35,302 bases of DNA from Saccoglossus kowalevskii. Taxonomy: Eukaryota > Hemichordata > Enteropneusta > Harrimaniidae. Under the pieces are notes generated by a model that was not told where the DNA came from, ran no database searches, and was given only the letters and a program-made list of their open reading frames with translations. Position numbers and translations under genes: made by a program. The DNA lies in contig NW_003119429.1 in NCBI RefSeq assembly GCF_000003605.2, forward strand, positions 410,162-445,463, written 5' to 3'. Shown in pieces: positions 6,638-32,225 of this stretch; the stretch's first letter is position 1; each line of letters begins with the position of its first letter.

Positions 6638-6772
6638 ATGTGCGCATACGTCAGATGGCCATAGCGTGTCATTGTTTACAAACACTGCAAGCGTTCAGCC
6701 ATGAGCCTTTGCATTTTAGCATGCGTTGTTATCGTCGCTTGGGACTCAATTCCCGCGCGTGCGCAGGTGACG
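6638..6772. mobile_element. MITE-like element, copy 2
   Basis: A second copy, in the same orientation, of the element at 2467-2605. The right terminal repeat (CGCGTGCGCAGGTGACG) is intact. The left one is degraded to GTGCGCATACG, so the copy looks older or truncated at its left end. The interior differs by scattered substitutions and short indels around 6685. Confidence 0.75.
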
Positions 6773-8791
6773 CGTCCTGTTCGATGTGGGACTCATAGCG
6801 ACGTATACAACGCGTGCAAAATACATTGTTTATTTACATGAAATTCGAACACGCGCTGCACGACGACCACCGCGCTTTAAAATAGCGCCATGAAATCACG
6901 TTTAATATAGTACACTTACATCGCTAATCACAACACATGTTATCGGGGCTTTGGGTGATCCTCTGCTGACATCCACTGATAACACTGCTAAAAAAACATC
7001 GTTAGAATATATAAACATGTTAAACATATATTTGTTACATCCATGGTCACCCTAATCCTACAGCTAATTGCACTAATGGGTTGAAAGGACGACTGGAACA
7101 TTGCAAAAAGTCGAAACAATGTTTTTTCTTTGATCAAATGGTTTTGCAACCGTTCCAAAACAGGAGTATCCCTATGTTATAGTAATGCTATTAGCATGGA
7201 GCTAAAACACATAGCTGCGAGCACGGCCCCTTTTTAATAGGGGAACTGTGTTCCTACACCACAGTCCCTCTATAGAGGGGATGTAACTACACACAACACG
7301 GAGCTCTATGTACACAATGTGTGAAATTGTATCGTATCTTCTTATCAGGGGATCTCCGTTTAAGCGCAAATCTTACGACAAATCAGTAACTGAATTAAAA
7401 TTACATTAAAAACAAAAGACAGATTAATAATGTAAACAGTGTTTACAATGGGTTTTGTGATGAAACCCCAGGCATCAACAGAATACGTCACATTGTGACC
7501 GACCTCTTGTAATAGTTGTACAACATGTCCTGTGTTTCGAAGACTGTAATATGTTTCTCGTCTATTGAGCTTCCAGATTGAAGTCGCCAAAACAAATCAC
7601 AATGTCCTCAATGAATTTGTTTCAATGTTTCTGCAACCCTTTAGAATGTTTTTCTTCTCAGAAGTGTAGACAAGTGTTTTACAACTGGCTGATGTAATGG
7701 AGGCCACTTGAAACAATAAATCACTTTGCGGCATCCTTATTCTTAGCTCACTAATCCCCTTGCCTTCAATTAGAACATTGTTCTGCTTTCCGTGATCTAT
7801 GCCACTTCGGGCCTTTGTATTGTTACAACGGTTCCCGACTGAAGTGATTAATCTGCACGAGTGACTAGCCACAGAATACAGTACTAGCTCATGCCACTAC
7901 TCGTTAGAAAAAAACAAAAAACAACAAAAACAACTCCGTCGAGTTTGCAGATATCACCTTGCGATAGCGTTTACAATCTGAGCATGGAGCTAAAAAAAGC
8001 TCCATGATCTGAGTAAGGAGTGATATATTTTTGAAGGATTAAAATTTGGCCCATGTTTACAAAGTAGTATTGACGCGCACCACGTGATGTGTGGTCTGGG
8101 TATAAACCCCGGGGATCGCAGAATAAAACAAAAAAAAGAATTATTCGTATACAAGCAGCTTACTAAACAATTGACTCGCATCCTGGGGCCATGTTTCATG
8201 ACCAGCGTCTGAGCACGGGACAATGGGAATTTAGGCAAGCGTGAGTAGATCAGTGGCGTTACAGCTAGTAACTTAGAAAAAGGGTAAACCGTGGACGATG
8301 AACGGGGCTCACTTGTGAATGAGATTACTCGGTCATCTATTATATGTGCAGCCACTTAACAGCCAAGTCACAATACGATTTGTCATAATTTACATCACAA
8401 TGAAGAAGGTGTGATGATTGATGTGTTTTGCTGCTTTATCAAGCAGTTGACAGCGTTGGAAGGGTACGTGGTGACTGGCATTCCAAATTAATTTGTATAT
8501 TGGGCCAACACACGGCAACCAATCAACTGTGTCCAACGCCAACTGACAGGATGATCAAATAACCTCAATAGGTTTCACTCGCTTGGCCGGCCAGTTGCTG
8601 TACGCTGTCTCTTCCCGTTTGTGCGGATAATACTACCACTGAAATGCCCAATGACACAATCACTGGCTACTCTACGTCCATCACATCGCTGCCCCACTGA
8701 CCAATATTGGAATCCAAATCCAGGATCACGTCGCTGTTAATTTAACTCGCTCAGACGATTTGTCTATGTGACGGTTTAGGGAAGAGGACTG
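6773..8791. other. Upstream flank of the SMOC gene, no separate gene seen
   Basis: No coding region I can support. The stretch includes an inverted-repeat cluster at about 7227-7282 (CCCC..GGGG, AACTGTG..CACAGT and TCCCTCTATAGAGGGG) and a hairpin at 7983-8006. A minus-strand word reading CFGDFN at about 7579-7596 recalls the endonuclease of LINE elements but is too short to call. Distal regulatory DNA of SMOC may be here; nothing specific can be named except a CCAAT/ATTGG palindrome at 8701-8710. Confidence 0.5.
7983..8006. repeat. Perfect 9-bp inverted repeat with A-loop
   Basis: CATGGAGCT at 7983-7991 and AGCTCCATG at 7998-8006 are separated by six A residues. The word AGCATGGAGCTAAAA also occurs at about 7194, so the two sites may share a repeat origin. 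Confidence 0.8.
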
Positions 8792-8929: not shown

Positions 8930-9004
8930 ATGAGATATTTATGGCTGTACATTTCGTGTGTAACAATAGCAGGGGTAATAGCCAATCCATTGTTTGGGAG
9001 CCGG
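8930..9004 (+). CDS. smoc: SMOC exon 1: signal peptide
   Basis: The ATG at 8930 opens MRYLWLYISCVTIAGVIA, a typical secretory signal with a hydrophobic core and a small-residue cleavage site (VIA) before NPLFGSR. The exon ends in phase 0 at CGG followed by a consensus donor GTAAGT (9005). The first residues of exon 2 (FPI) continue an R-F-x-I motif also found at this place in human SMOC. The frame overlaps a longer but meaningless open frame in another phase. The start is supported by the TATA box 132 bp upstream and by the signal peptide. Confidence 0.85.
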
Positions 9005-12000: not shown

Positions 12001-15000
12001 ATATTGCAATAGTAATAGTAAAATCTAATACAGGACAACTATGTACCTAAAACAAATGAGACGTATATATATTGCACAGCTTTAGTAAAGTGTATAGATA
12101 TTCGAAGCATTTTCCTGTCACAATGTTTGAACTAACTTCGACTTAACATGCGTAGATAAATGGATAGATTTATTTATTAATTATCAATTAATTATCACCC
12201 ATCAGTTTCCCATTGGCAATGATGATGATCGCAGCGATGAGTGCAATGAAGACTGTTCTACGGTAGTGCAGAGGGCGGTATGTGGAAGCGATGGACGCAC
12301 TTACGGCTCAAGATGCGAACTGATGCGAGCCAGATGTCGGGGCAGTACAGCTGAAATACAACATAAAGGAGTCTGCCAAGGTAACACATGCATTTACAAT
12401 ACAAATCTATCACTAGAATAATGTGTCGGATCACTATCATTGCTCAGTCGCACATGTGTTTCTAATAACCATGGCAACGATGTCCAATACGGTTACACCA
12501 TGCCTTTATTTTCGCAATTTAAAATGAACGCTTCTATGCTTTAATCGAATTGATGCCACCAAACTTGTATTATCCTAACTGTTTTGTATAGAGTCGTCGA
12601 GGTGTGAGGCTGAAAGAAAATACAACCAAGAACAGGCAAACCAGGGTCGCCAGGCGGGTCTGTTCATACCAGAGTGCACCGAGGAGGGCAGTTTTAGGGA
12701 GGTCCAATGCTATGCATCCACCGGTTACTGTTGGTGTGTGACTGACCAAGGGAAGCCCATACCGGGGTCATCTGTGCGTTACCAACAACCGCATTGTAAC
12801 GCAGACGACAGTAAGTTAGTACGTTATTTAAAAACGAAGAGTAAACATCAGGATACTAACGTGTTAAAGCACATTACTAACTATACTAAGCAAACTTCAC
12901 GATTTGGGCGCTGTTCCGTTGAAAAATAAGTGCGCTTGTTTTGTTATATACCTATCCAGTAGGTTATGTCCCCCACAAATAAAGTCTGTGTTTATTGGCA
13001 ATGTACTGTACTGTGCTGTACTGTGACTAGTGTTGTTCTGCTTTATTAGGCCGACCAAACAGTAGACAGGGAAAGTCTGCACACAGGAATAAAGGTAAAA
13101 AAAAAGAAAGCCTGCAAAACGTCATTGTACTTTTTCTCTCTCCGCTTATACTGCAATAGTTCCATGCATTCTCACGTGTTTTTTTGTTTTTTTTTGCTAC
13201 CCGGTTTCATTCATCGCCTGCCGCTTTTACCGCTGCGCGTGTTTGTGTGAAGAATGTGTGCACCTGAGTGTGTTGGTTAGCAGCAGTGTTATGGTCACCA
13301 TGCATGCTACCATCACAACTCCCAATGAACGCTTTATAACCTTGAGCAGAGACGGTAGTTTGCTTGCAATATTTACTATCAATACTAATCAAAGCTAGTT
13401 GCCCGAATGCAGGTGCACAGGCTATATTTAGCTGGCTGGCTGGCTTGCCTTGGATACTCACGTAAAATGACGTCATTGTATTCAATTTAAACACTAATAA
13501 TGCTGCATCTTTTAGCATTAATATTAATAATACTTACATTATTATAGCAATAATAAATGGTAACTGTGTTTTTTTTAGTCTGCAGTGAATGCACACCTGG
13601 CGATATGAATCGAGATACAAGTCCCATATAATTACATGAGTGAACGTTGTTCGGTTATTGGTTACTTTCCCGAATCCATTTAACATGCACGCACAAAAAA
13701 AAACGTATTCATATTCCTTTCCACCTTAAGTTGTTACTTTCGTATTTGATTATTTTCTGCTATAATAACTCTCTGTGGTTTCCACTCTTTATTTACAGGT
13801 TGTAGCCAGTCGGAGAGACAAGTCTTCAACAACAACCTAATATCCATATTCAAAGACGAATACGCAAGACTGCCAACGAAACCACCAGCGGCAAATGACG
13901 AAGAGTACGAAGGAAACCCGAGCCTGCAGGCACTGTCGGCAATCGACGAACACGTGGATTCGGTAAACCAAAATGTTATAGACTGGAAATTTTCCGAACT
14001 TGATACGAACGCTGACAGCGAACTCGATAAAAAAGAGTTGAAAACCATCACTAAAATGATTAAAAAAATCGTCGAGCCTCGAACTTGCGCTCGAAATTTT
14101 GCCAAGTATTGCGACTTGGACCAAGATGGCAGCATCACGAACGGTGAATGGGCGGTGTGCCTAGGGGTGGATAACAGTAAGTCATTTATGTACCTCCGTC
14201 TAAGCTTGTACTTGACCGACCGCCATTTTATCATTTGTAGACGAGTTTTTGTTCATCCACCGTTGTTGCTCTCTCTTTCTTCTCTGTTCTTTTCATGTGG
14301 TTCTTTACACGGGATTCCACTAAGGCGGAGATAAGTATGTTACAGATAACATATAAATAAATTAGACACAACGGCGTTTGCGTTTCATTCAAATCCAAAT
14401 AATATGTTGTGATTGGCTGAAACACAAGTTTCTCGGTATACATGTTCACAACCAGATGTACTGGACGTAGACGTTGTACAACCTTAAAAAACCTTGAAAC
14501 ATACAATATCCGATGCCGACATGATTTGTTTTAAATTTGATCATACAAACCACAGTCCCTCTATCGAGGAAATGTGTACAAACCAATGACGTCAATCACA
14601 CACTTATTCTGATTGGTTCGATTCGGGCATTAATGTCAAACATCTATAAACCGATATACCTTGCTTGAGTGGATTCGCCTGTAAAATTAGCCAACGCGAG
14701 TGACATCACTCATAATTAACTATGCTATACTAGCATATGATACAGAAGATGAAACAGAGAGTAGTAGTTTGTCCTTTGATCCAACCCGACCCAACCCCTT
14801 TTTTACCCCCCTCTTACCGCGGATTTTGTCTAAAACACAAACTTTTCCTGTACGTATTAACGTGTTCATCTAATACTGATTTATGTAGATTTGTTTTTCT
14901 CCCAAAAGTATCATAGATTCAACAGATAACGCTACCTCCTCTCTATTACATATATATATATGTGTGTGTTAATTTTTCTCAGTATTTGTCACGTGACCCA

Positions 15001-18000
15001 ATCAATGCATGTATCAAGGTATGTCTCATCTTAACCTTCTTCATAACTAATACCTGTATATCAATCAATCAAATAAATAAATAAATCGATTAGTTAACTT
15101 GAACTTGAATTTTACATGGTTAATCAATGTTTGCAAGACGAGGATGTCCGTGCAAATCGACTACGCCCGATTTTAATTTAAAGAAAAAAAACACCTTCCC
15201 GTCTTCACTATATCCTTTATAAATTAGATATAACAAAGATAGGGAGGGAACCCCGTGGCTCTTCATCGTGAAAAAAAACTCTCTTACCATTTCAAGTTTT
15301 TTTTTAGATGAAGAGCCATGTTCTTTTGTGCCGGGCAAGTGCAAGAGTATTTCGTAGGTTTAGGCTTCATATTCGGTTTGGTTACCTTTGTAAATGTAGT
15401 CTCGTTTCGATTATTCCTTTCTCTTAACGCAGAGGGAGTGATCACAGAACCACAACCCGTGCCCAGTGAAATTCCCCCGGAAATAGGTGAGTATTTTTTA
15501 CTGCATTATTCATGCATTACTGATATATCGTAAAATAACGTATACCTGTTTTCTTGGTCGCCCATAACAATGATAACATGCGTTTTTTATCTGTTATTAA
15601 TCAGTAAAAAAACATAGCACGTTTTCGAACAGTTGTGTGCGTGATCGAACATTTCTAATTTGTGTATAGAATGACAAACGTCACACCGTGAACATATCAC
15701 AGTAACTATATCATATCTTTTTAACCTATGTAGAGGAACCAGAGACGAAACCAGAGCGTATCAGCGATGAGCCTACTCTTGTTGATCGGCAAACTCCACA
15801 AGTTCCGCTTATTCCGATCAAAGGTGAGTACAGGATGATTTTATAGGTGATACCTTTCACGCAGACCCACTCGCATTCACCTCGTCCCGTTAACATAAAC
15901 TGATGTAGACATATGCTCCTGTCGGTCGCCCGGTGTACATCGCCTGGTCACCAAGAACGTATCCTGTCCTTATCAGTCAAGTCTAATGTGAAATGTATTC
16001 AATTTGTAATTCAGTTAGTCTGTAGCCCACTTTTTATTCCCCGTTTCAGGTGCAGACTGAAAAGGGGAGTATAGTTTCTTATTTCGGGTTTCCATCTGTG
16101 ACGTTTCCATTACATCTCTACATCCATTAAATTTTTAGTGGGTCATTTTAATGATTTTCATCCAAAATTACCTCTCCCGTCAACAACTGAGCATGCTCAG
16201 AATAAATAATTCGCTTAGATTGTAATGCTAGGGTTTTCAGTGATGTCATGATCTTGATCTGAATCAGTGACAAAAATGGAAGACAGTCTGGTTTTTGTTT
16301 GGTTTTATGAAAAATTAACGCTGAAATCTTGAAAAAAGTGGTCAGAAATGTTGTTGTATATTATATCTTTAAACTGTAAAAATTGCATTCCATTATAAAG
16401 GGCCATCACTGAAATACCAGGTCACGAAGTTGAATATCAGTGAAAACACTTTACAGTTACTGTTTATAAATCTTGGCCAGGCACATTGACACATGTGGTC
16501 TAAATATAGCCTCAGTTGTCAGGGCTCGTGGATAAATGGGTCGTATCATTACGAATCTCAGTGGAAACTGTAGAGGGGTGTCAGGGCTACATTTTGATGG
16601 AAATTATAGTGGTGGTACTGAAACAAACCCAGGTCCTGGTAATATACAAAGCCCTGAATTAACAAAGAAGTCAAGTTGTTATTAAAGTTACATCAAGGTT
16701 TACTCGGATTTATGAATGCAGTTTCTTGAGCATGTATACATGTATGAGACACAGTTTGGTTGCACTTGTGTACTCTGAGATTTTGGACATGGGTCAATGG
16801 AAGTTTTCAGTTATCAATACAATACTAGATTAAGGGAAACCACTTTATGATGAGTTGTACCCACATAGAGTACATATTAATTCAACTGTTTGCAGATGTT
16901 CCATGTATTATTTTAACATGAGTATTTTATAATTAAATTACGGGGACTGTGTGACATTCATGTCTTGTTAAATTTGATAACCAGAAAATATTATTTCCGT
17001 ATTACTATTATTGGTATTTTTGTTATTACAGAGCATTCTTGTCAGATCGACAGACAAGTGGCTTTAGCAGAAGCTGAAACCGCACCGGACGCCGATATTT
17101 TTATACCTGAGTGCACGTCGGACGGTAAATTCCGGGCGGCACAATGTCACGCTGCGACGCAATATTGTTGGTGCGTACTGGTCGATACGGGGCGGCCAAT
17201 ACCAGGAACGTCGACCCAATATGAAATGCCGGAGTGTGGGACCAGCAACACGCCGAAAGTACCGGACAGGGATATGAAAGGTAGGTTGTCTCCTACTGCC
17301 ATGATGGAATGGCCGTTCTATGTTGCTGCAAAACCAAATAAACCACATGCTTCACCTCCCAGCACCGATGTCGCACAGATGGACCTCATACACTTGAAGA
17401 GAAAACTGCTACGTAAGCTATCCATCGTACTTAGTCGTTATGTAAAAAGGGCAATGTGGGCAACATAAAGAGGGGATTATGATTTATCATAACCCGAAAT
17501 TGTTCAATCTTCGTATTTCTTAGGCTTTGATTATAGTTCCATGCTTTGATCAAGGCCCACGTATTTACGCACTTAATACTGAATTAGCGGTATGTATATG
17601 TAATTCAAAACGGCCGTTCTTATACATGTACCCAGTTCATTATTTCGAGAGAAAAATATAATTTACTATATCAACATGCGCCAATGAAGATGAATAATTA
17701 TTTGCCGTTTTATTTAAATACAGTTATATAATAAAGACTATTGGTGAGCTTATCCAATCAATTAGTTCTAAGCCGCACCACAAGTACAACACTCGATCAA
17801 ACCTATTAGAATAACAGTTTTAGGAAATTTCAAGAGAACGTGCAGGACGGATACTGGTTGAGATATTATTTCAAATTGTGGGACGAATATTGGCAGAATT
17901 TCATTCCCCTTAGGTTTTGGTTGAATCACGTTTCCGGCTTACTAGCATTACAAGACTTCAACCATGACCAAAGTTATCTTCCTGAAGAATGTAGCTGGAA

Positions 18001-21000
18001 ATTTCTATACTGTGGTTCCGTACCGCCGACAAGCGACACATGCAACCAAATATATACGAATATTTTCAGCCATATCATTTTAAAAGGTCTTTTACTCCCC
18101 ACTAAATAATATGGTTAAGTGTGTGTCACATGACTCCAAGTCTCTTGCGACATTGAAAGATTACAAGTAATTGTCTGTGCTGAACCACGTATCTTAGAAT
18201 ACGTCACGGTATGGTTGAATAAGGCAGATGAAGTGGTGTGTTATTGAACAGTGCATTGTATCAACTAGCGATTAAGCATGTTGTATCATTGACATTATCC
18301 TAAAACTGTGCGTATTACCCGGGCTTAATTCTTAAAAAAAACTTGGATGGCGACTGTCGTGTACCTATTCCGAGTTGTCATGACAACAGCTCTAGTATCT
18401 TATGTTACCTACCTATCTACCTACCTACCAAAATTACCTATCCATATACCTACCTGCTCACCTACCTAACACCCAACCAAAACAAACCCAACTATAACAG
18501 TCCAAACCCATGCCACCAATCCCCAAAACATACCTACCTACCACACACCCAAAAAATACACATACACCCACCCACCCACCTACCTGTCTGCCTACAATAC
18601 ACACACCCACCAATCATCCTACGCACGCACGCAACTCCGATCCATCCAAACCATTCTCCCCTTACATCCAACCCACCCTCTTACCTCTCACATTCACGCG
18701 CACAAGCGCAACAACACACACGTATCGAGGACAGAGCATGGCGGGATAGAGGATTTGAACGGAGATGTAATACGAGTAAAAAAAAGTCTTGGCATGTGCT
18801 GCGAATGTCCTTTGACCCAGCACCACTAAGTAGTTTCAGGTTGGGTTTGTAGGTATAGCCTTGTTATCGTAACCCCAGCTATTTGTTGTCAGATGGGGGA
18901 TCTGTAGTCAGTCACATTCCGCGCATTTCCCTCGCAGCTTGAAATCAAATTCCCCCTTCCAGCTACCGTATAAATATTTACGATGTTGGAGAGAGAGAGA
19001 GAGAGAGAGAGAGGCACAGGTGCTTTCATAATCCATGTACAAGACCCTGGGCCGGAAACACCGTCACCTTAAAAATTTCTGTTGGCATGGTGATGACACT
19101 GATCTCCGCGCAGCTTTACGAGCCGTGTAAAAACATCTTGAAGTTTGTTGAGTTGGGAGTTGTCATAACGCGCCGGAGACGACGATATCTCTTGTCTTCC
19201 GGGCTTGTCTCGCTAAACCATTAACTATATGATTCAAATGATATCTCTGTACACGATTATTCTGAGTTGGGGATCTGTTTTGTGTGTGTGCCTTTTTTTA
19301 ATAAGAAACAGTGATTACTATAAAGTGCCGGGTGTCATGTTTTCTGCATTCTTGCGTTATCGACAAGGAGGAATAAAAAAAAACGTATCGCTCATGTGAT
19401 ATTTACGTCACTTAAAAACGTCTTACACGTGTGCGTACTTTAAAAAAATCAGGCGGTATCCTAGCGGGGCTTGAGCAGTTCCCGACTACTCGTAGTACAA
19501 CAAGACCTTTGTCTGACTACCACATGTCGGAGTATTCGCATAATTCAAATGTGACCACTATTGCCCTCACTGAACGCTCGTTTATAGCACGTCGTTTATG
19601 TCAGTTATAATTAAAACGTACACCATTGACGCTGTAATGTGTAAATATTGTTCATCACTTGGGGGATATATAGTTGTCTGCATATTGATATTAAATAACA
19701 TTCAAGTTGGTGTTTATTTATGCGGTATTTTGACGGCGTTTCTCACATGGAAAATGTTTACAGTCATTCGTGTGAGCCGCAGATATTTAGCCGATGCCCC
19801 ACGTCAACGAGTTCTTCAAGTTCTTTGTCAGTCTGAACCGTCCTTGTTCTTGGAAATGTCACGGTCGTGTGTCGCACGGGCACGTTTTTTTTTATCAAGT
19901 TTATTAAAAACTCGGTATTTTTTAGCAATCTGTTTACGCTTTAGGAGTTTCAAAGGTTGGGGCAGTGTGCCAAAGTTCTGGGTTCCCTTGAGATTTGAAA
20001 TGGATTCCTCGAAACATATTAGACGCGCTAGAATATCGTCGATACCCGAAGGCTGACAGATAGAACTGAACTATTCGTAAAACGCGAGTTGACGACATAA
20101 ATTGCTTTAATAGGTGTCTGGCTTGCCATCGCGTTGATTTATATATTGACATTGCGATAAGCGATGGGCACAGGTGTGAATACACAATTGCGAATAACTG
20201 AACATCGTTATAATAACGAGGCCGACTGGTGGAGGGGGGGGGTAATCTTTAGAGAGAGACTGACAATACATTGAAATAAATACCTATTTAACACATGGAT
20301 ATAAATAGCCCGGTCTAAACTTAAACAGTAATGCGATTATAGTCTCTTCTGACCGCCCAATGTGGAGTCTAGGGGTGATAGTTTTTCATTGATAAAGAGA
20401 TGTTTAAAAAATGATTCGTATTTATTTAGTCTTCTAGTCATTCAAGCTGTGATTACGTGGCGTCAACTACGGCATGTCATGCTGGAGACATATTCCCCCT
20501 TTCCCGAGTCACATATTGCAGTTAGACGGGGAAAGCGTGCTCTATGGCAGATATCAATTACATGCTTCTTTCGTTTGTGTTTCAACTTATTGTTATTTTT
20601 ACTCAGGATGTCCCACGGACAAGAAAGAACGTTTTCTCACAAGCCTTTTTGACAAACTGACGACGGACATGGTAGAGAATATGAACGCCCAGGAAGGGTA
20701 AGCGGACAATGAATAATTTAAAATTGCAAATAACACTTCCCGTGGTTACACGATTGGACAACTCTTGGCTCAGTGGAACTCACCATAAGCCGTGCCGAAA
20801 TAGTATGAAACTGGTTTGAACTTGTGTCTGAACTAGAGTGGGTATTGTTCAACACAAAATCCACGGTGTTTTCTCAGGATGCGATACTCACTGAAAATAT
20901 TTATCTATTCACGCGACCACACAAAATGTCTCTCAGTTCAGCACTCCATATTGCGATTTTTTCAATGTCTCTCTATTTACAGCGCCACGGAACCAGACCC

Positions 21001-22214
21001 GAACGACTCTCTTAAAGAAAGTACAGCCAAGTGGAAATTCCGGCAATTGGATCTAAACGGGAACGACTTGATTGACAGGAAAGAATCGGCCAAGTTTAAA
21101 AAGGAAATCAAGTCGCTCAAACCCAAGAAATGTGCGCGAAGTTTTTCACGTTACTGCGATGCCGACGAGGACAGAAAAATCACACTGACAGAGTGGTTGG
21201 ACTGTTACGGCCTAAATAAGGGTAAGATCCAATAAATAATTACTCCACATGGTTACTTACATGTTACCTAGCAACGGTTCATTCTCATGTATTTCATCTC
21301 TTATTTCAGATGAGGAAACAACTACAAGTAGCAAAAGACGGGGTCCCAACCCTTTTAGTAAGTATGCATAGTAACTCATGCAAAACCTTTTTTGTGTGAT
21401 GTCCAATACCTCCCTGCAATAATTTTCATTTTTAGTTTTTAAAAAAAATGCATAATTTTTATGAAGCAAAACACTTGTGGTTTACATTTTTCTTTATTTT
21501 TGTTTTTCCTCTTCTTTTATTACATCAAATCTTTGTACCATGGTTACAGTACAGTGGTTGAATCCAGGTCAGTACTGTAGATCAGTACTAGCATCACCAT
21601 GGTAACACCGCATGTATCCTTTGCATGTTCTTCTGAGGAATTGTTAATTCACTTGTATGTAATGTTTCACCATCCTTCCTCTAGCTGTGACGTGTCACTG
21701 GTGTCCCCCATGTGATTGACAATGGTGTGCCCTGATATACAATATAGTGTTGTGAAGCAATACACGTAGTAATAAATACTGTAAGGGTCTGTGCCATTGT
21801 GAGGGAGGGAGGGTGCAGAAAGTATTTTAACACATAATTACATAAGGCTTTAGTTGATGCTAAGATGCTGCGTAATATTGTTGTTTCTAACATTACTACC
21901 TCCCCTCAACAGTATTAATGGCTATATCCTTTACTGACACTGGAGGTCAACTTAATATATTCATTTTAAAAACCAAAATAGTTTTGCATGGATGACTTTT
22001 TGTATCATGCTACAAATCAAGTGCACTGTACTGAAACAAATTACTTCTTTGATAAAGAATAAATACAAAAGAACTCCATTCTTAAAATGGTTTTGATATT
22101 ATTCAAATAAAAACATTTTACTACAATCAATAGCTGACTTCAACTGCTTTTTTTTTTTTTTTTTTTTAATTTCAACATTATTTCTGTTTGATTTCAGTTG
22201 AGCGACTGACTTAA
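8930..22214 (+). CDS. smoc: SMOC-family secreted calcium-binding protein (whole coding span, 13 exons)
   Basis: The spliced coding sequence joins 8930-9004, 12206-12380, 12592-12810, 13050-13094, 13799-14176, 15308-15346, 15433-15486, 15734-15823, 17032-17280, 20607-20697, 20983-21221, 21310-21357 and 22198-22214. It gives 572 residues; all introns are GT-AG and phases match throughout. Domains are: signal peptide 1-18, Kazal about 38-82, TY1 about 86-153, EC1 about 172-297, acidic linker 298-358, TY2 about 360-428, EC2 about 442-551, basic tail. SMOC proteins are secreted matricellular factors that bind calcium and heparan sulfate and modulate BMP signalling. That role is known for the family and inferred here. 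Vertebrate SMOCs are about 435-450 residues; the excess here is mostly EC1. Orthology rests on remembered human SMOC1/2 motifs: RF[LP]I after exon 1, PIPGTST in TY2, GCP..KK..F[IL]TS and EPDP before EC2. Exact exon edges are predictions. Confidence 0.92.
9005..12205 (+). other. smoc: SMOC intron 1 (3.2 kb)
   Basis: A phase 0 intron with donor GTAAGT and acceptor CACCCATCAG. As the first intron it is the likeliest place for intragenic enhancers, but I recognise no specific sites. It includes homopolymer runs near 11222-11256 (A and C runs) and AT dinucleotide patches near 10917 and 11431. Several open frames around 9562-9968 overlap in three phases and show no protein-like pattern. Confidence 0.75.
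12206..12380 (+). CDS. smoc: SMOC exon 2: Kazal/follistatin-like domain
   Basis: The exon codes 58 residues plus one base (phase 0 in, phase 1 out). After an acidic stretch (NDDDRSDE) come six cysteines in the Kazal pattern: DEC, EDC, AVCGSDGRTY, SRCE, ARC and GVC. The VCGSDGRTY core is the diagnostic Kazal signature. In SMOC this domain follows the signal peptide directly, as here. Kazal folds are protease-inhibitor-like, but in the SPARC/SMOC family they are mainly structural or ligand-binding; inhibition is not implied. The donor is GTAACA at 12381, slightly off consensus. Confidence 0.93.
12592..12810 (+). CDS. smoc: SMOC exon 3: thyroglobulin type-1 domain 1
   Basis: A phase 1-1 exon of 219 nt. 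The domain has six cysteines in the motifs SRCE, IPECT, VQCY, GYCWCV and PHC, with the diagnostic CWCV core and the G-[KR]-P-I-x-G-[ST]-S loop (GKPIPGSS). It resembles TY1 of vertebrate SMOC, which also has GYCWCVT and GKPI.GSS. Thyroglobulin type-1 modules can bind heparin or proteases; a specific ligand cannot be read from the sequence. The donor GTAAGT at 12811 is strong. Confidence 0.95.
13050..13094 (+). CDS. smoc: SMOC exon 4: short basic linker
   Basis: A phase 1-1 exon of 45 nt encoding a basic, unstructured stretch (RPNSRQGKSAHRNK) right after TY1. The position and the S-Q/R-x-G-x-S-x-R-K flavour match the start of the SMOC linker in vertebrates. The acceptor CTTTATTAG has a good pyrimidine tract; the donor is GTAAAA followed by an A-run, which is mediocre, so exon skipping is conceivable. 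Skipping would preserve the frame. Confidence 0.75.
13579..13620 (+). CDS. Candidate cassette exon between SMOC exons 4 and 5
   Basis: After a strong acceptor (a T-run then TAG) the next 42 nt are open in the right frame and phase (1 in, 1 out), coding VCSECTPGDMNRDT. The frame would hit a stop just beyond, so the exon would have to end at A followed by GTCCCA, which is a weak donor. It is not included in the main model. It would add two cysteines ahead of EC1 if used. Confidence 0.2.
13799..14176 (+). CDS. smoc: SMOC exon 5: extra EF-hand EC domain (EC1)
   Basis: A single phase 1-1 exon of 378 nt encodes a whole SPARC-type extracellular calcium-binding (EC) domain. It starts with GCSQSERQVF, continues with a helical region (NLISIFKDEYARL), a linker with acidic DEEYEG, and DWKFSELD leading into two EF-hand loops. 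Loop 1 is DTNADSELDKKE and loop 2 is DLDQDGSITNGE; both keep ligands at positions 1, 3, 5, 9 and 12. The C-A-R-x-F-x-x-Y-C pair flanking loop 2 is the conserved EC disulfide region. It resembles the C-terminal EC2 of the same gene (about 40 percent by eye over the EF-hand pair), including a Trp after the loop-2 Glu. Known vertebrate SMOCs lack an EC domain between the two TY domains. Acceptor TTTACAG and donor GTAAGT are both good. Confidence 0.93.
14177..15307 (+). other. smoc: SMOC intron 5
   Basis: A phase 1 intron of about 1.1 kb. It contains a sequence at 14550-14570 (CACAGTCCCTCTAT) also found near 7260 upstream of the gene, so a small shared repeat is likely. A (TA)/(TG) patch lies near 14950. 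No further exon is evident. Confidence 0.7.
15308..15346 (+). CDS. smoc: SMOC exon 6: tiny linker exon with two cysteines
   Basis: A phase 1-1 exon of 39 nt coding EEPCSFVPGKCK after the split codon. The acceptor has a nine-T tract. The donor A|GTATTT is weaker than its neighbours, and the alternative GTAGGT at 15355 would change phase and is rejected for that reason. The two closely spaced cysteines probably pair with each other. Confidence is moderate because the exon is short and I know no homologue. Confidence 0.6.
15433..15486 (+). CDS. smoc: SMOC exon 7: acidic proline-rich linker
   Basis: A phase 1-1 exon of 54 nt coding GVITEPQPVPSEIPPEI. The acceptor TTAACGCAG and donor GTGAGT are good. 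The proline/glutamate-rich content is like the low-complexity part of the SMOC-specific linker of vertebrates and suggests an extended hinge between EC1 and TY2. Reading the same DNA in another phase gives a hydrophobic open frame starting in the intron, which I treat as a shadow. Confidence 0.75.
15734..15823 (+). CDS. smoc: SMOC exon 8: linker
   Basis: A phase 1-1 exon of 90 nt coding an acidic, proline-rich segment (EPETKPERISDEPTLVDRQ, then TPQVPLIPIK). The acceptor CTATGTAG and donor GTGAGT are good. Like exon 7 it has no cysteines and no predicted fold. Together exons 6-8 make a flexible arm of about 60 residues before TY2. Confidence 0.78.
15824..17031 (+). other. smoc: SMOC intron 8, with retroelement-like insert
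   Basis: A phase 1 intron of about 1.2 kb, donor GTGAGT, acceptor TTATTACAG. Its middle (about 16440-16700) holds a small open frame with an ETNPGP motif, described separately. The rest is AT-rich without recognisable content. Confidence 0.7.
16536..16685 (+). pseudogene. Retrotransposon-like ORF fragment with near-2A motif
   Basis: A 49-codon frame from ATG at 16536 to TAA at 16683 reads MGRIITNLSGNCRGVSGLH, then FDGNYSGGTETNPGPG. The core SGGTETNPGP parallels the SGDVExNPGP 2A-like peptides at the N-terminus of many marine-invertebrate non-LTR retrotransposon ORFs, where the ribosome fails to form the Gly-Pro bond. Here the usual Asp is Gly, so activity is doubtful. The frame closes soon after and no reverse transcriptase follows, so it looks like a decayed 5' fragment inserted in a SMOC intron. 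It could also be chance, because the motif is short. Confidence 0.35.
17032..17280 (+). CDS. smoc: SMOC exon 9: thyroglobulin type-1 domain 2
   Basis: A phase 1-1 exon of 249 nt. Cysteine motifs HSCQ, IPECT, AQCH, QYCWCVLVDTGRPIPGTST and PEC define a complete TY domain. The run CWCVLVDTGRPIPGTST matches what I remember of TY2 in human SMOC1/2 and is the strongest family identifier in the window. It ends with a basic/acidic spacer (KVPDRDMKG) leading directly to GCP at the start of EC2, as in vertebrates. The donor is GTAGGT at 17281. The frame stays open into the intron to a TAA at 17466, and a better donor, GTAAGC, lies at 17413 in the same phase. Confidence 0.96.
18400..18610. repeat. ACCT/CCCA-type low-complexity tract
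   Basis: Imperfect repeats of ACCT, CTAC and CCAC units on the plus strand, almost free of G over about 200 bp. This is a decayed tetranucleotide microsatellite. Purine/pyrimidine strand asymmetry here is strong and creates spurious Pro/Thr-rich open frames. Confidence 0.85.
18987..19013. repeat. (GA)n microsatellite
   Basis: About 13 GA units in SMOC intron 9. In insects such runs can bind GAGA-type factors; here I treat it simply as a microsatellite. Confidence 0.9.
20607..20697 (+). CDS. smoc: SMOC exon 10: start of C-terminal EC domain (EC2)
   Basis: A phase 1-2 exon of 91 nt coding GCPTDKKERFLTSLFDKL, then TTDMVENMNAQEG. The GCP, KK, FLTS and TTDM words match the beginning of the EC domain in human SMOC (GCP..KK..F[IL]TS..DALTTDM). 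This is the amphipathic first helix of the EC fold. The donor is GTAAGC at 20698. Confidence 0.93.
20983..21221 (+). CDS. smoc: SMOC exon 11: EF-hand pair of EC2
   Basis: A phase 2-1 exon of 239 nt. It opens with ATEPDPNDSL (human SMOC has SEPDPSHTL here), then WKFRQLD and two EF-hand loops: DLNGNDLIDRKE and DADEDRKITLTE. Both keep the position 1, 3, 5 and 12 oxygen ligands; loop 2 has Arg instead of Gly at position 6. The basic segment KSLKPKKCAR and the Cys pair C-A-R-S-F-S-R-Y-C match vertebrate SMOC, where this region contributes to heparan sulfate binding. Acceptor CTATTTACAG and donor GTAAGA are good. Confidence 0.95.
21310..21357 (+). CDS. smoc: SMOC exon 12: basic C-terminal tail
   Basis: A phase 1-1 exon of 48 nt coding DEETTTSSKRRGPNPF. 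The acceptor TTATTTCAG and donor GTAAGT are strong. A Thr/Ser stretch followed by KRR resembles the short basic tail after the EC domain in vertebrate SMOC2 and could add heparan-sulfate affinity; that function is inference. Confidence 0.85.
21550..21567 (+). CDS. Candidate SMOC microexon (6 codons)
   Basis: Between exons 12 and 13 a CAG acceptor (21547-21549) precedes 18 nt that are open in the correct phase (1 in, 1 out), coding IQWLNPG across the joins, followed by donor GTCAGT. A pyrimidine-rich stretch lies 20-60 nt upstream. Inclusion would lengthen the protein from 572 to 578 residues and keep the frame. It is left out of the main model because such short matches arise by chance. Confidence 0.3.
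22198..22214 (+). CDS. smoc: SMOC exon 13: last codons and stop
   Basis: After a long T-tract and acceptor GATTTCAG the frame continues for five codons (I/V-ERLT) and ends at TAA (22212-22214). The phase fits both exon 12 and the candidate microexon. The short coding part makes it less certain than the domain exons, but no competing phase-compatible terminal exon is nearer. Confidence 0.7.
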
Positions 22215-23744: not shown

Positions 23745-23837
23745 NNNNNNNNNNNNNNNNNNNNNNNNNNNNNNNNNNNNNNNNNNNNNNNNNNNNNNNN
23801 NNNNNNNNNNNNNNNNNNNNNNNNNNNNNNNNNNNNN
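23745..23837. other. Assembly gap (93 N)
   Basis: A run of unknown bases. It is bordered on both sides by copies of the same local repeat and, at right, by a promoter-like sequence, so the real missing length and content are uncertain. Confidence 1.
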
Positions 23838-26409: not shown

Positions 26410-27107
26410 TGAGTAATCAACTGTATTACCTCAAGTACTTTTGATAGGGATCAGACAAGTGTTGTGACCAATATATCAGATGACCATTTTTGGTCACATG
26501 ATCTTATTAATATGCATGACTATCTCGTGCACTTCTGCAAATACTGATATACAGTCATCTCTATAGTGAAGGCATCAGACAAGAAGCATGACTGGGTTGT
26601 CATGACGATGATTATATATAGATATGCATTGGCTAATATTTGACATAAAATATAGTATAAAGCATGCACCATCACAAATATTTCAACAACCATTCATCAG
26701 ATTTCAATACAACAACGTAGGTGTTCTGGGCTAATCCATAGAAGTTATTAGTTGAGAAATTAGAATCTATGCATGTTAATTACCAAATTTGCATGAATTA
26801 GCTCATTTTCTCATAAAATTCAACTCAAACACAGACAGCAGACCAGAGATCTATGCTATCACATAATTTTAATACTGTTAATATTATAAACTTGTTAAAT
26901 ACAATAATTAGCATGCTTCTTTTGAATAATCACTAATTCGGCTACCTTAAATACTCTCAGCACACAGATTTTCTTTCTAAGCTTTCTTTGAACTAGCCTG
27001 GCATGGTTGCCAATAGTTACTGTGCTCTCATAGATCCAACTACATGTCTGAATGAATCTGTCAGTGAGAGTGTAATTACCATCACTGACCAGGAAACTAA
27101 ACAGGAA
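26410..27107. other. Intergenic stretch, no gene seen
   Basis: AT-rich sequence with scattered TATGCAT words and one weak copy of the TTTCAAT repeat (26701). No open frame with splice or protein support. Confidence 0.5.
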
Positions 27108-27440
27108 CTTGTCCAATATCTCTGAATATGCAAATTAAGCTCATTACTATGCATGGATTTGCTGAATAACTAATCATGAATTGCACTTGTCCAATATCTC
27201 TGAATATGCAAATTAAGCTCATTACTATGCATGGGTTTGCTGAATAACTAATCATGCATTGCACTTGTCCAATATCTCTGAATATGCAAATTAAGCTCAT
27301 TACTATGCATGGATTTGCTGAATAACTAATCATGCATTGCACTTGTCCAATATCTCTGAATATGCAAATTAAGCTCATTACTATGCATGGGTTTGCTGAA
27401 TAACTAATCATGCATTGCCATTGTCCAATATCTCTGAATA
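27108..27440. repeat. 78-bp tandem repeat, four units plus a partial fifth
   Basis: GTCCAATATCTCTGAATATG begins at 27111, 27189, 27267, 27345 and (partial) 27423, an exact period of 78 bp. Units differ by only a few substitutions (for example GGATTT/GGGTTT and ATGAAT/ATGCAT), so the array is recent. The period is divisible by three, which gives an artefactual minus-strand open frame of 26-residue repeats. Confidence 0.95.
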
Positions 27441-27762
27441 CTGCATTATTGATACATTTTGGAATAGAATTTGCACTGATTGATAGCAATATCTTCTTTA
27501 TATAAATTCCAAATACCCAACCATTTAAAAATCAAAAACTTCACCATAAAATATGCAATGCTACAGCAATAAATTAAAAAATCCGGACATTAGCATAAAG
27601 GCAAATTGTCAGTCTGGCAGAATTTTGTTCATCTCATGGAATAACATAAACTGAGATGAATCATTGAGTACACAACTTGAGGGTCACTGTGGTATATTAA
27701 GATATCAGAGTCAACATTACACAAAGTTCACTGATGCATTAGAGACATCACATATAGATAAT
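27441..27762. other. Probable 3' flank of the minus-strand exon
   Basis: No coding sequence seen. If the minus-strand exon at 27763-27865 is real, this interval contains its 3' UTR. No AATAAA in minus orientation was noticed close by, which is a weakness of that call. Confidence 0.4.
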
Positions 27763-28639: not shown

Positions 28640-29125
28640 AAAGAAACAGTCAAGCAGTCTAAAACTTACCCTATGGGGCTTAGTTTGCAGTCGCAGCAAG
28701 CAGTCTGAAAAAGACCTAAGGAGCCTATTTTTCAGTCACAGTGAACAGTCTGAAACTGGCCTAAAGGGCCTAGTTTTCAGTTACAGTGAGCAGTCTGAAA
28801 TTGACCTAAGGAGCCTAGTTTGCAGTCACAGCGAGCAGTCGAAAACTGACCTAAGTGGCCTAGTTTGCAATCGCAATGAGCAGTTTGACACTGACCTAAG
28901 AGGCCTAGTTTGCAGTCACAGCGAGAAGTCTAAAACTGACCTAAGGGGCCTAGTTTGCAATCGTAATGAGCAGTTTGACACTGACCTAAGTGGCCTAGTT
29001 TGCAGTCACAGTGAGCAGTTTGAAATTGACCTAAGGGGCCTAGTTTGCAGTCGCAACGAGCAGTCTGAAACTGACCTAAGTGGCTCAGTTTTCAGTCACA
29101 GCGAGCAATTTGAAACTGACACAAT
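28640..29125. repeat. 45-bp minisatellite, about ten units
   Basis: Units of 45 bp contain GAGCAGTCTGAAACTGACCT, AAGTGGCCTAGTTTGCAG and TCACAG. Because 45 is divisible by three, a 181-codon plus-strand frame stays open and reads as 15-residue repeats (SEQSETDLRGLVCSH). Differences between units mostly change the amino acid, and there is no splice or promoter context, so I read it as non-coding. Confidence 0.9.
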
Positions 29126-30490
29126 AACGATTTATACACTTCCAACAAAGACTTTTTACAACAGACTTTATTAATGAGTCAATTGTTTTAAATGCACTTA
29201 AATACTCCCTAATGCAAAGTGTTTTGAATGCATGTGAATGAGCAAAAATTACAAAAATAAATAGGCAATGCATTTGACAAATTTAATTTTAATTGCTTTT
29301 AGGACACTATACAAACATACATAAAATATTTGAATATTGTCTGTAGGCAAAGTTGTATTAAAATGAGCAGTTTAGAAGATAATTGACATTAGTGACGTTA
29401 CATTGATTGCTAATGAACCATGGACGACAAAAACTTGCACATTGCATACAAATCAGCAAGGTGGGTATTGATCACAGTTTTCACTTTTTTACACATGGGT
29501 ATAAGTGAAATTTATCATATCCAGTTCACAAGTTCAAGCTATTGAAAACCATAACGTCTAAGAAGATGTCGCATTTCAATGATCAAGCAAGCAATAAATG
29601 TTGTACAATGTATGTGTGCCTCTATTAGACATGTGCTTCTAATAGAGTAAATATGGTATTTAGATGCACAAGACTCAGCAGCCATGCATTGCAGACATGT
29701 ACACTTGGTTACAGCCCGAAGTTATACAAGTGATCCCTATTAAACAGGAACAACAATCTAACTACTACAGTACATTATTAAATGATAAACTAATTACTAT
29801 CACAGATTAGATTTCCACAAGCACGCCCCCTAGTGGCCACTGAACAACATTGTTATACCGGTAGTTGCAGTGTACAGAGTCGGGTGCAGGCTTTGCATAA
29901 CAGTTTGTGCCAAGCCACAGATTGAACATTCTTAATTATAAATAATGATGTATGTTTGCCATTTTTTAACTTCACTGTAGAATAGTCTTTAAAAAAAAAA
30001 TACTCATGTTACTAGTAATTGTGTGCATTAGTTATGATTTTAGGATTTTGTCAGAATTTAAAAATATTCAGAAACATTAAGTTTTCTCGCAAATAGAAGC
30101 AAAAGTGTGCAGTGATTTTGGAAAACACTTTGGGATTTGTTTTTTTGTTTTGTTTCTAGGCCTTATGAGTTTCAAAATATTGATGGTTTTTCAGATTCAT
30201 TTTTTTTCATCTCACCAAATAGAAGATGTTTTGTGCATGTCAAATAATGAAATTTACCTTCTAACAGCATGATGACTCAAAAATAAACAACTATACTTGC
30301 AAGAAGTATGATATCAAATGACAAAGATTTGGAGAATATCAGAAAAGTCATTCAAGAGGCTATCAAATGTCTGCCGCTGGTTTACATAATTGGCATACAA
30401 CTCTACAAGTTTTCTTGTTTGACACTTCAATTTGACTTTAGAAATCTTTATTCTGACAAAAAGAGCACAATGTACTTTTTTTCTGAGAAT
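29126..30490. other. Intergenic stretch, no gene seen
   Basis: AT-rich. A GCCCCCTAGTGGCCAC word at 29825 resembles the edge of a short interspersed repeat. No exon could be supported on either strand. Confidence 0.5.
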
Positions 30491-32225
30491 AAAACTGTCA
30501 GTCAGCCATTTTGGCATACAACTGTCAGTTAGCCATTTCGGCATACAACTGCCTGTCAGCCATTTTGGCATACAACTGTCAGTTAGCCATTTCGGCATAC
30601 AACTGCCTGTCAGCCATTTTGGCATACAACTGTCAGTCACCCATTTTGAAATACAACTTCCTGTCAGCCATTTTAGAATACAACCGTCTGTCAGCCATTT
30701 TGGAATACAACTTCCTGTCAGCCATTTTGGAATAAAACTGTCAATCATCTATTTTGGCATACAACTGTCATTCAGCCATTTTGGCATACAACTGTCAGTC
30801 AGCCATTTTGGCATACAACTGCCAGTCAGCCATTTCGGCATACAACTGTCAGTCAGCCATTTTGGCATATAACTGTCAGTCAGCCATTTTGGCATACAAC
30901 TGCCTGTCAGCCATTTTAGAATACAACCGTCTGTCAGCCATTTTGGCATACAACTGCCTGTCAGCCATTTTAGAATACAACCGTCTGTCAGCCATTTTGG
31001 AATACAACTTCCTGTCAGCCATTTTAGAATACAACCGTCTGTCAGCCATTTTGGAATACAACTTCCTGTCAGCCATTTTGGAATAAAACTGTCAATCATC
31101 TATTTTGGCATACAACTGTCAGTTAGCCATTTTGGCATATAACTGTCAGTCAGCCATTTTGGCATACAACTGCCTGTCAGCCATTTTAGAATACAACCGT
31201 CTGTCAGCCATTTTGGCATACAACTGCCTGTCAGCTATTTTAGAATACAACCGTCTGTCAGCCATTTTGGAATACAACTTCCTGTCAGCCATTTTGGAAT
31301 AAAACTGTCAATCATCTATTTTGGCATACAACTGTCAGTCAGCCATTTCAGCATACAACTGTCAGTCAGCCATTTCAGCATACAACTGTCAGTCAGCCAT
31401 TTTGGCATACAACTGTCAGTCAGCCATTTTGGCATACAACTGTCAGTCAGCCATTTTGGCATACAACTGTCAGTCAGCCATTTTGGCATACAACTGTCAG
31501 TCAGCCATTTTGGCATACAACTGCCTGTCAGCCATTTTGGCATACAACTGCGTGTCAGCCATTTTGGCATACAACTGCCTGTCAGCCATTTTGGAATACA
31601 ACTGTCAATCAGGTACTTTGGCATACAACTGCTTGTCAGCCGTTTTGGCATACAAATTCCTGTCAGCCATTTTGGCATAAAACTGTCTGTCAGCCATTTT
31701 GGAATACAACTTCATGTCAACCATTTTGAAATAAACTTCCTGTCGGCCATTTTAGAATACAACTTCCTGTCAACCATTTTGGCATACAACTGTCTGTCAG
31801 CCATTTTGGAATACAACGTTCCGTCAGCCATTTTGGAATACAACTGTCAGCCATTTTGGAATACAACTGTCAGCCATTTTAGCATACAACTGTCTTTCAG
31901 CCATTTTGGAATACAACTTCCTATCAGCCATTTTGGAATACAACCGTCTGTCAGCCATTTTGGAATAAAACTGTCAATCATCTACTTTGGCATACATATG
32001 TCTGTCAGTCATTTTGGCATACAACTTCCTGTCATTCATTTTGGAATATAACCATCTATCAGCCATTTTGGAATACAACTTCCTGTCAGATATTTGGAAT
32101 AAAACTGTCAATCATCTACTTTGGCATACATATGTATGTCAGCCATTTCGGCATACAACTTCCTGTCATCCATTTTGGCATACAACTTGTCAGTCATTTT
32201 AGCATACAACTTCCTGTCAGCCATC
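30491..32225. repeat. 27-bp minisatellite, about 64 units, with higher-order structure
   Basis: The unit is close to CTGTCAGTCAGCCATTTTGGCATACAA and recurs across 1.7 kb with variants (GGAATACAACTTC, AGAATACAACCGT, GGCATACAACTGC). A variant unit, GTCAATCATCTATTTTGG, recurs at 30741, 31092 and 31308, spaced 351 and 216 bp (13 and 8 units), and the blocks around it repeat together. Near the right end some units are shortened. Frames stay open on both strands because 27 is divisible by three; none is a credible protein. Confidence 0.95.

What the first reader, a model, noticed from the sequence alone, without database searches (positions are those of the whole stretch)
13799..14176. SMOC gene with an additional EF-hand EC domain between its two thyroglobulin domains
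The spliced gene reads Kazal-TY1-EC1-linker-TY2-EC2. Vertebrate SMOC proteins, as I know them, have no EC domain in the region between the TY domains. EC1 has two complete EF-hand loops with all key ligands, so it should bind calcium. It sits on one symmetric phase 1-1 exon flanked by phase 1-1 exons, the arrangement expected from exon shuffling or duplication without frame damage. A two-EC SMOC could bridge partners or sense calcium differently from known SMOCs.
Basis: partly seen in the sequence, partly recalled or inferred. Interest (0 to 1): 0.8.

Follow-up and report, generated by a model that had tools for sequence, protein, structure and literature searches.

The report
Ancestral SMOC with two EC domains
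This acorn-worm gene for the secreted signalling regulator SMOC really does carry an extra calcium-binding domain, but that is the usual form among the invertebrates sampled and was already described in the fruit fly; the vertebrates appear to be the ones that lost it.

Summary
The 12-exon model gives a 559-aa protein identical to NCBI's predicted SMOC1-like isoform X1 of Saccoglossus kowalevskii. Exon 5 (13799-14176, phase 1-1) encodes a SPARC-type EC domain between TY1 and TY2. Of 157 retrieved proteins, 76 have EC1 (60 with non-vertebrate names from nine phyla, 16 unnamed) and 81 lack it (79 vertebrate names, 2 unnamed). EC1 domains form one side of a 100/100 branch; the single vertebrate EC lies with EC2. 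So EC1 is ancient and was lost in vertebrates. EC1 keeps the EF-hand ligands in 24 of 24 species and 5-7 of 8 heparin-binding positions; my working model is two heparan-sulfate sites per protein. Beyond the finding: an 11-residue insert after EC1, encoded here by a possible 33-nt alternative acceptor at 15400, recurs in several phyla and in the vertebrate linker. It looks like the flank left when exon 5 was lost.

The parts
8930..9004 (+). exon 1: start codon and signal peptide
   Evidence: N-terminal helix 2-18 in model
12206..12380 (+). exon 2: Kazal/follistatin-like domain
   Evidence: Kazal_2 E 1.2e-9
12592..12810 (+). exon 3: thyroglobulin type-1 domain 1 (TY1)
13050..13094 (+). exon 4: basic linker before EC1, phase 1-1
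13799..14176 (+). exon 5: EC1, SPARC-type EF-hand pair domain, phase 1-1
15400..15432 (+). possible alternative 33-nt 5' extension of exon 6 (upstream AG at 15398-15399) reading ISFRLFLSLNA in frame; matches inserts at this place in other phyla
   Evidence: no transcript evidence of its use in this species
15433..15486 (+). exon 6: linker after EC1, phase 1-1
15734..15823 (+). exon 7: linker with PTL motif, phase 1-1
17032..17280 (+). exon 8: thyroglobulin type-1 domain 2 (TY2)
20607..20697 (+). exon 9: EC2 first part (phase 1 to 2)
20983..21221 (+). exon 10: EC2 EF-hand pair (phase 2 to 1)
21310..21357 (+). exon 11: C-terminal tail
22198..22214 (+). exon 12 coding part, ends in TAA
   Evidence: identity of the product to P0001

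Best explanation
The locus is the SMOC/Pentagone gene of the acorn worm Saccoglossus kowalevskii in the ancestral bilaterian form FS-TY1-EC1-TY2-EC2. SHOWN: the gene model, two bona fide EC domains, one EC1 group across nine phyla, and absence of EC1 from the vertebrate proteins retrieved. INFERRED: each EC folds around two Ca ions and shows a basic helix E/F face that binds heparan sulfate, so the protein carries two glycosaminoglycan sites flanking TY2, while the TY domains contact BMP. Two sites let one molecule bind two chains or two glypicans, cluster them and compete with BMP for them, spreading BMP as Pent does. Vertebrates lost exon 5 (frame-neutral, 1-1) and carry a single, more basic EC (8 of 8 heparin positions, against means of 6.0 in EC1 and 5.6 in EC2 of two-EC proteins).
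Against: No expression or binding data for this protein. Both listings come from two-EC queries and show 120 of about 680 hits each, so single-EC invertebrate SMOCs may be under-sampled; C. elegans SMOC-1 has one TY and one EC (PMC10464977). PMC10464977 passages propose that a SMOC EC can touch the glypican core and that EC C-terminus plus TY touch BMP, so EC1 could be a protein-binding rather than a GAG site. In 17 of 24 species EC1 has non-basic residues at two of the eight heparin positions, in 3 at three. EC2 of one sea urchin has only 2 of 8. The link of vertebrate EC to amphioxus EC2 is only 90/76. The EC1-only Z lies under the level (about 13) at which the tool's note stops warning about helical folds.
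Confidence: 0.62

Rival explanations
1. EC1 is a recent, hemichordate-specific gain by exon shuffling or by duplication of EC2.
For: Symmetric phase 1-1 exon between phase 1-1 exons; EC1 has no internal intron whereas EC2 is split by a phase-2 intron.
Against: EC1 precedes the second TY in the 76 EC1-bearing proteins, whose names cover nine phyla; EC1s form one side of a 100/100 branch and do not pair with the EC2 of their own species; EC1-EC2 identity inside one protein averages only 29% against 47.5% EC1-EC1 between species.
Confidence: 0.02
2. EC1 is mainly a protein-protein module (BMP, glypican core or spacer holding the two TY domains apart on a BMP dimer), and its basic face is incidental.
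For: PMC10464977 (passages): modelling places both TY domains of human, frog and fly SMOCs on the BMP dimer; EC contacts with the LON-2 core and with BMP are predicted, and in human SMOC1 the linker between the TYs replaces the EC contact. EC1 is conserved over its whole EF core, 55.8% against 44.9% for EC2.
Against: Heparin-contact positions stay mostly basic in EC1 of 24 of 24 species (5-7 of 8) and the E-F segment keeps net +5 to +9.
Confidence: 0.3
3. Exon 5 is a separate nested gene or an optional exon that rarely joins SMOC.
For: The exon is symmetric, so skipping would keep frame.
Against: The deposited prediction joins it (P0001); EC1 is present in each isoform retrieved of Argopecten (4 of 4), Mytilus (9 of 9) and Cryptotermes (3 of 3); EC1 is better conserved than EC2. 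These are gene predictions and the listing favours two-EC forms.
Confidence: 0.03

Closest known systems
Drosophila Pentagone (Pent, CG2264; also magu, recalled)
   Same: FS, TY, EC, TY, EC order; described in PMC5360445 and PMC10464977 (passages read).
   Different: Hemichordate orthologue; function in BMP spreading shown for the fly only. I did not retrieve the fly protein itself.
Vertebrate SMOC1/SMOC2
   Same: FS, two TY, C-terminal EC; single EC groups with EC2.
   Different: No EC1 (81 proteins, 79 with vertebrate names); in three vertebrate proteins scanned the linker is Pfam Thyroglob_assoc; EC has 8 of 8 heparin positions basic in 12 of 12.
C. elegans SMOC-1
   Same: TY followed by an EC that binds glypican LON-2 (PMC10464977, passages).
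   Different: One TY and one EC (PMC10464977); not sampled here.
SPARC/BM-40 EC domain
   Different: SPARC has no TY domains (recalled) and lacks the basic E/F cluster (1 of 8, alignment; 'unique to the SMOCs' in PMC3578922).

Membership tests
SMOC family | Signal peptide and Kazal/follistatin-like domain | tested here: met
   Kazal_2 E 1.2e-9 at 37-82; N-terminal helix 2-18 in the model; no signal-peptide predictor was run
SMOC family | Two thyroglobulin type-1 domains | tested here: met
   PF00086 two stretches, E 1.1e-38
SMOC family | C-terminal EC domain with two EF hands | tested here: met
   PF10591 two stretches; EF-hand_7 at 472-529
SMOC family | Regulates BMP signalling, binds heparan sulfate | not testable with these tools
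   only inferred from residues
Pentagone-type (two-EC) SMOC | Second EC between the TY domains | tested here: met
   EC1 grouping
Pentagone-type (two-EC) SMOC | Clusters and internalises glypicans, extends BMP range | not testable with these tools
   needs cell assays
SPARC EC domain | EC fold with paired EF hands and four conserved cysteines | tested here: met
Testican/SPOCK | Single TY domain, located after the EC domain (recalled definition) | tested here: not met
   two TY domains, each preceding an EC

The most novel reading that the evidence does not exclude
The 'unique' disordered linker between the TY domains of vertebrate SMOC1/2 is the flank of a deleted EC domain: the vertebrate ancestor lost exon 5 exactly, joining the exon-4 donor to the exon-6 acceptor. 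That acceptor carries a tandem alternative 3' splice site 33 nt apart, whose polypyrimidine tract is read as [VI]SFRxFLxLN, and this optional 11-residue insert has been kept since the bilaterian ancestor on both sides of the loss. The remaining vertebrate EC then strengthened its basic patch to full strength.
Probability: 0.58. Interest if true: 0.6.

Novelty: new member of a known kind. Interest (0 to 1): 0.36.

Why it matters
It reverses the direction of surprise: the human SMOC layout appears to be the derived one. On this reading human SMOC1/2 have lost the EC domain that, in the 24 two-EC species compared, evolves more slowly than its partner. Results on BMP spreading by Pent (two ECs) and by vertebrate SMOC (one EC) should therefore not be pooled without asking what EC1 does. 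The loss and the insert give directly testable predictions about multivalent heparan-sulfate binding and about a very old alternative splice choice.

Tried and rejected
Recent exon shuffling: rejected by the tree and distribution. Nested separate gene: rejected, the deposited prediction joins exon 5. Loss of Ca binding in one EC as the reason for keeping two: rejected, both loops intact in 24 of 24 EC1 and 24 of 24 EC2. A decayed EC1 inside the vertebrate linker: no trace, best EC1-profile score 0.4 bits among the 81 linkers. Searching with the EC1 region alone gave only 4 hits, too narrow to show distribution. A vertebrate-linker profile without the insert is weak: 3 of 74 invertebrate linkers over 5 bits against 5 of 1480 shuffles; only Priapulus is clear (20.7 bits). 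So the linker homology rests mainly on the insert plus the PTLW motif, and the insert's composition is partly set by a splice-site polypyrimidine tract. My first, stricter pattern for the insert matched 8 of 75 linkers after EC1 and 20 of 81 linkers without EC1; the looser pattern (22 of 75) was written after seeing those sequences, so its shuffle control understates chance. Of the 20 vertebrate linkers with the insert, 19 were used for the profile; one without 'LW' was dropped. No cnidarian, tunicate, cyclostome or nematode name appeared in the listed hits, so the origin of EC1 and the exact time of its loss are open. tRNA and Rfam (gathering threshold) scans of the window found none. Literature searches (listings) showed me no paper describing EC1 in hemichordates or the conserved insert; only eight papers were opened, by passages, and most subscription papers are not held. 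Vuilleumier 2010 and Bertrand 2013 (recalled) were not read.

Full report
WHAT IS THERE. The window is contig C1214:410162-445463 of its assembly. The spliced product of twelve exons, all introns GT-AG, is 559 aa with one stop. Pfam finds SPARC_Ca_bdg twice in the product and once in exon 5 alone (58.9 bits, cut-off 22). The six-frame search of the genome lists four PF10591 matches, two of them in this gene (counts there are lower bounds).

HOW COMMON IS IT. Searches list 120 proteins each (of 682 and 679 hits), 157 distinct. With profiles built here, 76 carry EC1 and 81 do not. Of the 76, 66 read Kazal-TY-EC1-TY-EC2 and ten are truncated, duplicated or oddly predicted models. By the names printed, 60 of the 76 are non-vertebrates and 16 are unnamed; 79 of the 81 are vertebrates and two are unnamed. 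Named EC1 carriers cover hemichordates, amphioxus, echinoderms, nemerteans, a priapulid, annelids, molluscs, arthropods and a tardigrade (phyla assigned by me from the names). The sample is ranked by similarity to two-EC queries, so it cannot show that single-EC invertebrate SMOCs do not exist; C. elegans has one (PMC10464977, passages).

HISTORY. A tree of 60 EC domains (24 EC1, 24 EC2, 12 vertebrate; 115 columns) puts the EC1 domains on one side of a branch with support 100/100, and the vertebrate EC next to amphioxus EC2 (90/76). EC1 is the more conserved of the two: mean identity 47.5% against 38.9%, higher in 243 of 276 species pairs, and in 24 of 24 species means; over the EF core 55.8% against 44.9%, 258 of 276 pairs. 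Pairs are not independent. So EC1 was present before protostomes and deuterostomes split, and vertebrates dropped the slower-evolving domain.

ALREADY KNOWN PART. PMC10381214 (passages) says the echinoderm SMOC has the vertebrate set of domains; the passages I saw do not mention a second EC, while five echinoderms here have one.

MECHANISM. Human SMOC1 EC binds heparin through helices E and F; replacing four basic residues in each abolished it (PMC3578922, passages). I mapped those eight positions by their spacing on a rodent SMOC1, where all eight are K or R. At them EC1 has 5-7 basic residues (mean 6.0; Saccoglossus 6), EC2 2-7 (mean 5.6; Saccoglossus 6), and vertebrate EC 8 of 8 in 12 of 12. 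Net charge of the segment is +5 to +9 in EC1, +2 to +12 in EC2 and +12 in vertebrates. Human SPARC has 1 of 8 with another in a gap (hand reading of the alignment). I infer two heparan-sulfate sites per two-EC protein. This fits Pent, which binds and internalises glypicans, probably after clustering them (PMC4924993, passages). It is inference: no binding was measured, and PMC10464977 reports core-protein and BMP contacts of EC domains that offer a rival role.

THE SCAR. The linker following EC1 often begins with an insert such as NISFRLFLSLNSD. A strict pattern matched 8 of 75 such linkers; a looser one, written after seeing them, matches 22 of 75, 18 of them starting within ten residues after the last EC1 cysteine, against 0.01 expected from shuffles. 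In this window the same peptide, ISFRLFLSLNA, is read from an upstream AG at 15398-15399, 33 nt before the annotated exon 6. In 20 of 81 vertebrate-type linkers a matching peptide, mostly VSFRFFLTLNS, lies between the TY domains. A profile from 19 of those 20 scores over 5 bits in 30 of 74 and over 8 in 16 of 74 invertebrate post-EC1 linkers, against 10 and 0 of 1480 shuffles; 0 of 73 pre-EC1 and 0 of 72 TY2-EC2 stretches exceed 5. The insert alone gives 17 of 74 over 5 bits against 4 of 1480 shuffles; the rest of the linker alone only 3 of 74 against 5 of 1480. Deposited isoforms of one species differ by 11 residues exactly here: a scallop (P0018/P0020, no other change), a frog (P0043/P0057, plus a separate six-residue difference) and a tortoise (P0048/P0105, among other changes). 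I read this as an old alternative acceptor that survived the loss of exon 5. Against: isoforms are predictions, nucleotides were seen only for this window, so elsewhere a micro-exon is not excluded, and P0001 itself lacks the insert.

VERDICT. Real, correctly read, and ordinary for an invertebrate SMOC. The interest lies in the vertebrate loss and in the conserved splice choice beside it.

Noticed in passing
15400-15432: Possible in-frame 33-nt alternative acceptor extension of exon 6 (ISFRLFLSLNA) whose polypyrimidine tract would be coding; matching inserts occur at this place in proteins of another hemichordate, echinoderms, amphioxus, a nemertean, an annelid, molluscs, arthropods and vertebrates, shown optional by isoform pairs in a scallop, a frog and a tortoise.
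   Followed up: yes
EC1 versus EC2 in 24 species: EC1 is more conserved than EC2 in 24 of 24 species means; EC2 end branches are very long in Diadema, a termite and a tardigrade.
   Followed up: partly
P0005 (Tegillarca granosa, 976 aa): Predicted Kazal-TY-EC1-EC2-TY-EC1-EC2 protein, possibly a tandem duplication or a fused gene model.
   Followed up: no
2466-2606 and 6641-6777: Two copies (95% and 93% alike over blocks of 59 and 44 nt, 87% over 23 nt) of a ~140-nt element; the first has 24-nt inverted terminal arms (88% complementary) around GTCACCTGCGCA, like a MITE.
   Followed up: no
30489-32224: About 65 copies of a 27-nt tandem repeat downstream of the gene; further arrays at 4-645 (21 nt), 27107-27445 (78 nt) and 28653-29120 (45 nt).
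   Followed up: no
23745-23837: Run of 93 N downstream of the last exon.
   Followed up: no
P0140: SMOC labelled as from a copepod whose second EC scores better as EC1 than as EC2.
   Followed up: no
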